A program made the position numbers and the translations under genes. From assembly GCA_963693285.1 (NCBI GenBank), contig OY848917.1, forward strand, positions 11,780,192 through 11,844,191: DNA of 64,000 nucleotides, read 5' to 3'. This DNA comes from Xestospongia muta (lineage: Eukaryota > Porifera > Demospongiae > Haplosclerida > Petrosiidae). Under the pieces are notes generated by a model. The model did no database searches and was not told where the DNA came from. It saw only the letters and a program-made list of their open reading frames with translations. Positions 46,008 to 49,237 of the stretch are shown here, piece by piece (within the stretch, counting starts at the first letter, position 1; every line of letters starts with the position of its first letter).

Positions 46008-49000
46008 ATGTTGTTAAAAGTGTTATTGTCTTGTATGTTACTACTAGTACAACTAGGAGATGGACAAGAACCTACCAACAGACCTAGTAATGGTAAGTAG
46101 TTGTTGTTAGAGTGATCATTAATATATACTTCATAATAACAGGTGTACAACTGTATTTATTCTATGAGAGCAGGATAATACCAGACTTCTCAATGATATA
46201 TGGTAGACAGTTTTCTCGTCTTGATCTTAATAATGATAGTATTGTTGATACCTTGTGGTGTCAAAGTGCTAATAATGGTTCTAATATTGGACTATGGTAT
46301 TATCCTAATGGTACTCAAGTACCTTTGTTTAATGGAACACTTAATATTAATAATATTAACGATAGTGCACAAAGTCCACTATTCTCTAAGAGGTTCACAG
46401 GTCAGATTGTACTAGCTAGAAATGAAAACCTAATGGATTATGAAGGTTTGTACACCTGCATTATTCCTGATGAAAATGGAGTGAACCAAACACTAGTGGT
46501 AGGAGTATATAGTAATAATGGTTACAGTATTAACGGTTAGTGACTGACTTCATTAAGTAATAAGGTAATGATATATCTCACTTTTATATAGATGGTCCTA
46601 ATGCAGACTCCTCCATGAAGTTCTCTCTCATCTCCACAAGAGATGCTAATCCTCCAGTCTTCACTCTCACTTTCAATGTCTCTAATGGACCTCCCACTGA
46701 TGTCAATTGTACAGATGGAAGTAACCCATTCACCATTACTAGTGGTGACCTGTCTCGTGTGGTAGTGAATGGACCAGGATCTGTTACACAGGTGACAGTA
46801 ACAGTGAGGATGAGACAAGCTGGTACTTACCAGTGTACCGTCTCCAATGCCAGAGTAACTAATGGTCCTTCACCTGATTATAGTGGTCCAACTATAATTG
46901 CTACAAGTAGTAATAGTACATCACAGCCTATAACAGGTTAATAAATCACTGAGTAGGATGGTATACATGTTCTCTCTCTGTTATAGTTTCTGGTACTCCT
47001 ACTGGTCTGACTGCTACAAGACTGAACACAGGTCTGACTCATGTACAACTCTCCTGGTCATCTGTGTCAGGAGTAGCTGGTTATGAGGTGTTCTATCAAC
47101 TCAGTAATGGTAATAGTTCTGTTATGAGTGCAGGAACTACCACTAACACAATGTTGAATATAACATCAGGACTGAGTTTATACAGTACATATAACTTCTT
47201 TGTAATATCATATGGCAGTGAGGGTAGTACAGTACTACCTAGTGATCATAGCACCAATTTGTCATTAGGTGAGTACTTAATGAAGTTAGTTAATATTATT
47301 GTACATTCATCCTTACATTTTAGCTATCCCTTTGACCATTCTGACACTCACTACCACTAATACTACTATTACTATGACATGGACATCACCTTCATTTACT
47401 CCTCAAGACATAAACAGTTTTCTTCAATGTCGTAGACTGTGTGAAGAAACTGTAGGTCCTACTACTATACCTTCTAATTCATCAATCTCATCACCATATA
47501 CATTTACTGGTATTGATCCTGGTACTTACTGTATTGTTGGTCTTAATGGAGTATATGGTAATAACACCATAGTCCTGGTTGCTGAAAATACCACTACACT
47601 CTCATCTGGTAAACTATGTTATATTATCATATTCACAATTATTATGTTGTTATCATATTATCTACAGCACCCACTTCATCTGTCAGTAATATCACTATAT
47701 CATCAGTTGAGGCAAGGTCCATGACTATATCATGGGATGAGGTACCTTGCTCTGGACAGAATGGACCCATCACTGGTTACTTGCTCTACTACACTAACAC
47801 AACATTCAGTGACACTGTTAACATCACTGGTGGAGACAACAGACAATACAACCTCACAACACTCACACCTTACACTAACTACACTGTGACAGTAATAGCA
47901 TATAATGATGCTGGGACTGGACCAGTAGGCAGTGAGGTAATACAACAGACAGGAGAACCTAGTAAGTCAGTTACTACTGATATATAATGTATTATTGATA
48001 TAATGTAGAACCTGGTGTGGTATCTGGTCTAATAGAAAGTGGTACAGAGATACAAGTGATCAACATTACATGGAATATACCCACAGTACCCAATGGTGTA
48101 ATTATCATGTATGAGATACGTTATAGAGAGTCTAACAGTAATGCTCCATACAATATGATTAATACAACCAACACACAATACAGTATAGGAGGACTACTAC
48201 CTAACACTAACTATACCATTGGAGTGAGAGCATATACCAGTATAGGGTCAGGAGAATGGAGTATCTTAGGACTGGTAGGTGTGGTTTACATAGACCATGT
48301 CTATTTAATTATGTCCCTATTATTATAGGGGCCATTTCCATATGAGGGTGAAAATGCTGATTTAATTAATGCCGGTAAAGAGACTGTCACTATTCTGCCA
48401 TCTGGATCCTATTTCTCTAGTGATGAGTCGTTTGCTATGATAAGAGGGTAGGTCCCTATTAAATATTGTGTTAATTAGAATATAATTACATGTACATCTC
48501 TTACATGATAGAGGCCATCTTGATCTTACTATTTTGGGTGCTATGCAAGTCTCAAAATTTGGTGATCTAGCTAACTGGATGATACCAGTATATGATGACA
48601 TGATTTGTATGATAGTTAATAGTATTGTCTTAAAATGTAGGGTAAGATGGTAAAAGGGATGGGTGGAGCTATGGATCTAGTGTCTAGTAAAGATACTAAA
48701 GTTGTCATCACAATGGAGCATACTGCTAAGGTATAGGACTCCATGATCATTGACCTTCACTCTCTCTTTCTCTCTCTCTCTCTCTCTCTCTCTCTCTCTC
48801 TCTCTCTCTCTCTCTCTCTCTCTCTCTCTCTCTCTCTCTCTCTCTCTCTCTCTCTCTCTCTCTCTCTCTCTCTCTCTCTCTCTCTCTCTCTCTCTCTCTC
48901 TCTCTCTCTTTCTCATTCCAGGGAGGTGGTCATAAAATATTAGATCAATGTACTCTGCCATTAACAGGAAAGAGTTGTGTTAATAGAATAATTACAGAAC

Positions 49001-49237
49001 TGGTACAATAAATCATGTACATGTGTTGTCATGGTAACCAAATATGTATAGTGTGTATTTGATGTTGATGTTGAGAAGGGTCTGAAGTTGATAGAAATTT
49101 CAGAAGGGGTCAGTATTGAAGATATAAGATCATCAACTGGATGTACATTTGAGGTAATACATTATATTATTATAATATTATAATATACTTTATTATAATA
49201 GGTATCTACTGATATTAAACCAATGGGACAAATTTAA
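46008..49237 (+). CDS. Chimeric gene: receptor D ectodomain fused to SCOT C-terminal half
   Basis: Thirteen exons stay in one frame and predict 817 residues: 46008-46092 signal peptide (a diverged MLLKVLLSCMLLLVQLG); 46143-46535 Ig1; 46592-46936 Ig2; 46987-47268, 47324-47608 and 47668-47961 FN3 1-3; 48009-48274 FN3 4 joined to SCOT; then SCOT exons 48329-48447 (DLINAGKETV, SSDESFAMIRG), 48512-48587 (LGAMQVSKFGDLANWMIP), 48641-48730 (GMGGAMDLVSS), 48922-49002, 49052-49153 and 49202-49237. The joint in FN3 4 reads GEWSILGLG, where SCOT has its catalytic ENG-containing motif, so the active-site Glu and the whole N-terminal CoA-transferase domain are absent. There is no stalk or membrane helix, so the product should be secreted and without CoA-transferase activity. 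Expression is unproven. Confidence 0.75.
48761..48914. repeat. Expanded (CT)n tract before a chimera splice acceptor
   Basis: About 150 bases of nearly pure CT ending in TCATTCCAG at the acceptor of exon 48922-49002. It occupies almost all of the 191 nt intron. The corresponding tract at 45198 is 60 bases, so length differs between the duplicates. Confidence 0.92.

What the first reader, a model, noticed from the sequence alone, without database searches (positions are those of the whole stretch)
46008..49237. In-frame spliced chimera of an Ig/FN3 receptor ectodomain and a mitochondrial CoA transferase
Seven receptor exons and six SCOT exons join with canonical GT/AG sites and compatible phases into one 817-residue frame (exon sum 2,454 nt). 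Most random fusions would break the frame. The product would carry a signal peptide, two Ig and about four FN3 domains and the C-terminal half of SCOT, with no membrane helix: a secreted protein carrying a metabolic-enzyme fold. I know of no such architecture.
Basis: partly seen in the sequence, partly recalled or inferred. Interest (0 to 1): 0.92.

Follow-up and report, generated by a model that had tools for sequence, protein, structure and literature searches.

The report
Young receptor–enzyme fusion gene in sponge
In what is likely a sponge genome, the predicted outer part of a cell-surface receptor gene is joined to the back half of a mitochondrial enzyme gene in one unbroken reading frame; the frame is real, but it is likely a chance by-product of an unstable gene array, and no transcript has been tested.

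Summary
The 13-exon, 817-residue frame at 46008-49237 is present as described: 2,454 nt, all GT/AG. The account of how it arose changes. The genes do not meet at the 48274/48329 intron but inside exon 48009-48274, at a 2-base overlap (48261-48262). Receptor paralogues match up to 48262. From 48261 the DNA is a 97-98% copy of an apparently complete SCOT locus on contig C7, keeping its donor site and introns. So the fit of phases was one event with odds of about one in three. The joint cuts both parent domains: the FN3 loses its end; SCOT loses its N-domain and the start of its C-domain (Pfam CoA_trans 52-215 of 217), including the SENG motif. An active enzyme is very unlikely. The array is fragment-rich and carries SCOT 3' pieces in many places. 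No second copy of the joint was found in this assembly. No Ig/FN3 + CoA-transferase protein appears among the listed homologues. Best reading: a young, probably non-adaptive chimeric gene predicted to encode a secreted receptor ectodomain with an enzyme remnant. Transcription and read-level assembly support are untested.

The parts
46008..46092 (+). Exon 1: start codon, signal-like peptide MLLKVLLSCMLLLVQLGDG; belongs to a second type of receptor 5' end
   Evidence: the 5' end (within 45780-46110) matches other C7 places at 91-94%
46143..46535 (+). Exon 2 (receptor, first Ig-type exon by homology)
46592..46936 (+). Exon 3 (receptor, second Ig-type exon by homology)
46987..47268 (+). Exon 4 (receptor, FN3-type)
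47324..47608 (+). Exon 5 (receptor, FN3-type, fast-evolving)
47668..47961 (+). Exon 6 (receptor, fn3; Pfam 467-555)
48009..48274 (+). Exon 7, composite: receptor FN3 to 48260, shared GT 48261-48262, SCOT ATCTTAGGACTG 48263-48274
48261..48262 (+). Fusion junction: 2-base overlap (GT) between receptor and SCOT
48329..48447 (+). Chimera exon 8 (SCOT); in-frame 3-nt deletion and one replacement relative to the C7 copy
48512..48587 (+). Chimera exon 9 (SCOT)
48641..48730 (+). Chimera exon 10 (SCOT)
48769..48908 (+). (TC)n tract in the intron before chimera exon 11
48922..49002 (+). Chimera exon 11 (SCOT)
49052..49153 (+). Chimera exon 12 (SCOT)
49202..49237 (+). Chimera exon 13: SCOT end and stop
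44797..45197 (+). 5' remnant of a SCOT gene (first three exons in part, no start codon), 4 of 393 compared bases differ from C7
45198..45257 (+). (TC)n tract where the 5' remnant meets another SCOT tail
45258..45720 (+). Second SCOT 3' tail (tail A), 26 of 460 compared bases differ from C7; out of frame with the 5' remnant
48261..56028 (+). Segment shared with C7 (267556-259869) at 97-98% apart from the (TC)n tract; its left edge is the fusion junction
49578..52152 (+). Next receptor copy (unit 5), sister of the C7 copy at 266217, not of the chimera's receptor part

Best explanation
The first seven exons of an array receptor gene and the last seven exons of a SCOT gene copy are joined in frame inside one exon at a 2-base match (48261-48262), likely by one microhomology-type rearrangement in an unstable receptor array, and the product is predicted to be a secreted receptor ectodomain ending in a dead enzyme remnant. 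Shown: the joint, the source of each side, the open frame, and that neither the next receptor exon nor a membrane segment lies between the joint and the next receptor copy. Inferred: a segment carrying a SCOT tail plus a receptor with the second type of 5' end (exons 1-7) replaced the middle of a C1 SCOT copy, leaving its 5' exons upstream (44797-45197, no start codon, out of frame) and its 3' exons as the tail of the receptor. Predicted and untested: transcription from the receptor's 5' end, normal splicing through the SCOT introns, secretion, and no enzyme activity. If made, the protein would act, if at all, as a soluble form of the receptor.
For: Frame rebuilt. Receptor paralogues stop matching at or before 48262 and SCOT copies start at 48261; of 40 places scored (of 80 candidates) only the window spans the joint, and an 86-base query over it finds 3 places, of which only the window spans it. 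Base by base, receptor GAATGGAGT and SCOT GAAAACGGT have only GT in common directly at the joint. Window units 1-3 have the next FN3 exon and a membrane segment, as do several units on C7 and C9; neither is found between 48262 and 49578. The chimera's receptor part groups with three C7 units at 609-632 kb (support 93/91, just under the program's mark of 95/80), while neighbour unit 5 pairs with C7 266217 (100/100), so the two are not a simple tandem pair. SCOT 5' remnant (4/393) and tail B (8/461) are about equally close to C7 (Fisher p 0.56), while tail A (26/460) is further (p 0.0002 against the remnant, 0.0015 against tail B), fitting one split SCOT gene. In the fetched stretches 29 of 57 chained exon blocks hold E2-E6, the rest are fragments. 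The SCOT part covers CoA_trans profile positions 52-215 of 217 and aligns to human SCOT from the SENG motif on.
Against: The whole frame is still open, and the single SCOT indel is a multiple of three. SCOT exons differ from C7 at 4 of 516 sites (3 silent) against 7 of 314 in introns (p 0.11); this does not exclude constraint on the chimera, though constraint on the C7 gene explains it too. One base of chimera exon 12 (GGA) is shared by tails A and B against C7 and C5, which the split-gene history does not predict. The boundary at 44797 recurs at 29148 in another unit, so the 5' remnant may have an older, separate history. Loss of the membrane exon is not special to this copy: none was found near unit 5 or its C7 sister either, with a query taken from unit 1. 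The C7 unit at 256735, which also has a SCOT tail upstream and may resemble the donor, has a broken exon 3 and was not in the tree.
Confidence: 0.72

Rival explanations
1. Direct deletion or paste (another path to the same gene, so not exclusive with the main reading): the array once had a complete receptor followed by a complete SCOT, the order still seen on C7, and either a deletion of about 5 kb or the insertion of the 7.8-kb C7-like segment into exon 7 made the joint; the 5' remnant and tail A belong to a separate SCOT copy that lost its middle by recombination between (TC)n tracts.
For: C7 keeps receptor exon 7 ending at 272616 and the SCOT joint point at 267556, about 5.06 kb apart, in the same order. 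The 97% C1/C7 segment begins exactly at the joint. C7 SCOT has (TC)n tracts at both points needed for the second deletion. The remnant's left boundary recurs at 29148.
Against: The 5' remnant and tail A would be one gene, yet they differ from C7 by 4/393 and 26/460 (p 0.0002), while C5-C7 differences are alike in the two parts (43/272 and 53/345). Gene conversion could blur this.
Confidence: 0.3
2. Simple tandem duplication of a [SCOT 3' half + receptor] unit made the joint.
For: Tandem duplication is a known route to chimeric genes (PMC5460883, abstract read), and the order of pieces fits.
Against: The tree separates unit 4 from unit 5, and unit 4 has a different 5' end.
Confidence: 0.08
3. 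Assembly artefact: two array places were wrongly joined.
For: Long arrays and (TC)n tracts are hard to assemble; [quoted passage not shown] Reads could not be examined here.
Against: No N in the window. The joint lies in exon sequence with only 2 bases in common, whereas misjoins usually need long shared sequence (general knowledge). The (TC)n joint at 45198-45257 is the weaker one.
Confidence: 0.12
4. A functional new gene: a secreted decoy or matrix receptor retained by selection, with the SCOT tail as a folding or multimerising module.
For: Open frame, one in-frame indel, a receptor 5' end shared with other units.
Against: Both domains are cut at the joint. Open receptor exons are the norm here (23 of 29 units, this one included, by a lenient splice-site search). 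No second copy and no listed homologue of the fusion.
Confidence: 0.07

Closest known systems
Chimeric genes formed by structural rearrangement, as in Drosophila yakuba (PMC5460883, PMC6776367; abstracts read)
   Same: The 5' part of an existing gene is joined to other sequence in one mutational step, inheriting its start signals.
   Different: Here the partners are a sponge-type receptor and a mitochondrial enzyme and the joint is inside an exon; expression is not known.
Ig/FN3 receptor family of Amphimedon queenslandica (e.g. A0A1X7TC16, P0004: 56% over 97% of the receptor part)
   Same: Homologous Ig/FN3 ectodomain over nearly the whole receptor part.
   Different: P0004 goes on to a membrane segment and a tyrosine-containing tail (by eye), and 6 of the 50 listed homologues carry a PTP domain (PF00102). 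This copy ends in SCOT.
[quoted passage not shown] human 3DLX, pig 1M3E)
   Same: Residues 643-817 align to chain positions 305-480 of 3DLX and 304-479 of 1M3E.
   Different: No transit peptide, no N-domain, no start of the C-domain, SENG motif replaced by GEWS.

Membership tests
Chimeric gene made by rearrangement | A junction with each side traceable to a separate parent gene | tested here: met
Chimeric gene made by rearrangement | Continuous open reading frame across the junction | tested here: met
Chimeric gene made by rearrangement | Chimeric transcript | not testable with these tools
   no RNA reads available
SCOT (family I CoA transferase) | Both N- and C-domains, with the active site between them | tested here: not met
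   CoA_trans once, profile 52-215 of 217; aligned only from chain position 304-305 on
SCOT (family I CoA transferase) | Catalytic Glu in its SENG motif | tested here: not met
   GEWS instead of SENG; a Glu falls at the aligned place but comes from the receptor. That the Glu of SENG is the catalytic one (human Glu344) is by position count and recall
Sponge Ig/FN3 receptor family | Homologous ectodomain exons | tested here: met
Sponge Ig/FN3 receptor family | Membrane segment and cytoplasmic tail | tested here: not met
   no match between 48262 and 49578; present in window units 1-3, also not found near unit 5
Sponge Ig/FN3 receptor family | Two Ig domains | tested here: inconclusive
   no ordinary Ig model at E<=0.001 in the chimera; some homologues carry them

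The most novel reading that the evidence does not exclude
A newborn animal gene: selection keeps a secreted receptor ectodomain whose lost membrane anchor is replaced by a captured mitochondrial-enzyme module, giving a soluble decoy in a diversifying recognition-receptor array whose units repeatedly carry SCOT fragments.
Probability: 0.07. Interest if true: 0.7.

Novelty: new member of a known kind. Interest (0 to 1): 0.36.

Why it matters
It is a base-resolved, probably young example of how a receptor array in what is likely a sponge throws off fusion genes, with a near-parental locus for the enzyme side kept on another chromosome. It also shows that an in-frame multi-exon chimera needs no special explanation once the joint is located inside an exon. 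If expressed and kept, it would be a receptor–metabolic-enzyme fusion of a kind I did not find elsewhere.

Tried and rejected
Tandem duplication as the origin: disfavoured by the tree and the different 5' end. Exon-level fusion at 48274/48329: rejected, since that intron is SCOT's own. Active enzyme: rejected, because the N-domain and one side of the active site are missing. Selection test on the chimera itself: too few changes since the split (4 substitutions and one 3-nt deletion in the SCOT coding part). The 5' SCOT remnant as a second chimera: no start codon and out of frame with tail A. A paper search for CoA transferase, fibronectin type III, fusion protein, chimeric gene and sponge (at least 4 of 5 terms) found 0 papers. 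Searches for sponge Ig/FN3 families and allorecognition gave listings with no title on this array; I opened none of those papers. A search on chimeric-gene breakpoints gave mostly tumour papers; none was opened. Metagenome, viral and prokaryote genome collections, alternate haplotype and reads were not searched (the last two are not held).

Full report
What is there. A script spliced the exons from the window. The 13 exons give 2,454 nt including the stop, 817 residues, GT/AG at all 12 introns, and phases that fit. The structural statements in the finding about the frame are correct. Pfam finds fn3 (two stretches), a DSCAM-type FN3 and CoA_trans at 646-798, covering profile positions 52-215 of 217. 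No ordinary Ig model reaches E 0.001 in this copy. A Kyte-Doolittle scan finds no membrane segment after the N-terminal signal-like stretch.

Where the genes meet. I searched the whole held assembly (158 Mb, 28 contigs) with 48009-48520. Forty of 80 first-look candidates were scored: one place spans the query (the window), one matches 253-512 (the SCOT gene on contig C7, 97%), and 38 match the receptor side, ending at or before position 254. An 86-base query over the joint finds three places: the window in full, and C7 and C5 SCOT from base 17 on, at 100% and 90%. Base by base, receptor units read GGAGAATGGAGTGATACT, C7 SCOT reads AGTGAAAACGGTATCTTAGGACTG, and the window reads GGAGAATGGAGTATCTTAGGACTG. 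Directly at the joint the parents share only GT. So the exon 48009-48274 is a composite, and the 48274/48329 intron is an ordinary SCOT intron. Because the break lies inside an exon, about one joint in three keeps frame, and the later 'compatible phases' are inherited.

The parents. The receptor belongs to a large family. The window holds four other copies (exon-1 matches from 23095, 32529, 38521 and 49578), and one search lists 38 other exon-7 places (a lower bound). In the window and the fetched C7 and C9 stretches, 29 of 57 chained exon blocks contain E2-E6, and 23 of these 29, the chimera's included, have open E2-E7 by a lenient splice-site search. The array thus looks alive and rearranged. 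Window units 1-3 go on to another FN3 exon and a membrane segment; unit 1 also shows tail pieces with tyrosines. The membrane exon was not found for every unit: not near unit 5 or its C7 sister. Of 50 listed homologues of the receptor part, 41 are from Amphimedon queenslandica; 6 of the 50 carry a PTP domain (PF00102) and none carries CoA_trans. The C7 gene sits between receptor copies. SCOT 3' fragments travel with receptors: 35 matches to the 239-base tail on C1, C2, C5, C7 and C9, and in 10 of 62 matches the match runs from the SCOT tail into the receptor 5' end (6 on C9, 3 on C7, 1 on C2).

How it arose. The window from the joint (48261) to 56028 matches C7 267556-259869 at 97-98%, with the (TC)n tract left out, so the joint is also the left edge of a fairly recent C1/C7 segmental copy. 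Which contig was the source is not known. Upstream, 44797-45197 is a SCOT 5' remnant (first three exons) followed by (TC)n and a second SCOT tail, A. The remnant has no start codon and is out of frame with tail A. Against C7, the remnant differs at 4 of 393 sites, the chimera's middle SCOT part at 7 of 507 and tail B at 8 of 461, but tail A at 26 of 460 (Fisher p 0.0002 for remnant against tail A, 0.56 for remnant against tail B). C5-C7 differences are similar in the two parts (43/272, 53/345), so this does not look like a rate effect. I read this as one C1 SCOT copy split by a segment that brought tail A plus a receptor. Two results sit less well with it: tails A and B share one base of chimera exon 12 against C7 and C5, and the 44797 boundary recurs at 29148. 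A deletion or paste in the C7-like order is the main rival and gives the same gene. Simple tandem duplication is disfavoured: the chimera's receptor part groups with three C7 units at 609-632 kb (93/91, just under the program's mark), while the next unit pairs with C7 266217 (100/100). Six units with a broken or missing exon, among them C7 256735, which also has a SCOT tail upstream, were not in the tree.

What it would do. The joint cuts through both domains. The last FN3 loses the residues after GEWS. SCOT loses its N-domain and the first part of its C-domain; [quoted passage not shown] The chimera aligns from the SENG position. By coincidence a receptor Glu falls where the Glu of SENG was, but with no N-domain an enzyme is not expected. 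The stop is in the last exon, so nonsense-mediated decay is not expected (inference). If transcribed, the likely product is a secreted receptor ectodomain with an unfolded or unstable tail. In the SCOT coding part there are 4 substitutions against C7 (3 silent, one D to N) and one 3-nt deletion. Coding change is 4 of 516 against 7 of 314 in introns (p 0.11). This is compatible with constraint on the C7 gene alone.

Source organism. Contig lengths (C2 22.15, C5 8.75, C7 8.28, C9 7.16 Mb; C1 35.35 against 35.36) and total span (158.03 held against 158.52 Mb; 28 contigs held against 298 scaffolds) fit the giant barrel sponge Xestospongia muta, odXesMuta1.1 (PMC12398682, passages and section 7 read). 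The tools did not name it, so this is an inference. RNA and HiFi runs for that assembly are listed in the paper and would settle both open questions.

Verdict. The striking part of the reasoning fades once the joint is placed inside an exon. It is a probably young chimeric gene, most likely a by-product of array instability.

Noticed in passing
C9 5617-5680 kb, C7 (among others 257 kb), C2 2922 kb; window 26913, 36520, 42362: SCOT 3'-end fragments travel with the receptor array: in 10 of 62 matches the SCOT tail runs on into the receptor 5' end, and three window units have a SCOT piece after their last exons.
   Followed up: partly
window 47324-47608 and paralogues: Among 23 open receptor units, exon 5 has mean dN 0.248 and dS 0.240 (ratio 1.03) against 0.49-0.67 for exons 2, 3, 4 and 6 and 0.91 for the little-diverged exon 7; exon-specific diversification may point to a recognition role.
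   Followed up: partly
window 53200-56030: Ig, EGF and hormone-receptor-type exons that look like an adhesion-GPCR ectodomain follow unit 5, for which no membrane exon was found; the same order is on C7. Domain names are by eye.
   Followed up: partly
window 60345-62586: Direct duplication of 1,122 bases at 100% identity: very recent or an assembly effect.
   Followed up: no
window 13611-15749: Unbroken 712-residue frame that looks like a Roc/COR-type GTPase protein (by eye).
   Followed up: no
window 19565-20020 (-): Frame resembling a retroelement RNase H region (by eye).
   Followed up: no
window 45676-46023: A receptor 5' end and a 62-base piece of exon 3 lie before the chimera's own exon 1; a similar scrambled 5' end occurs on C7 near 257 and 246 kb.
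   Followed up: partly
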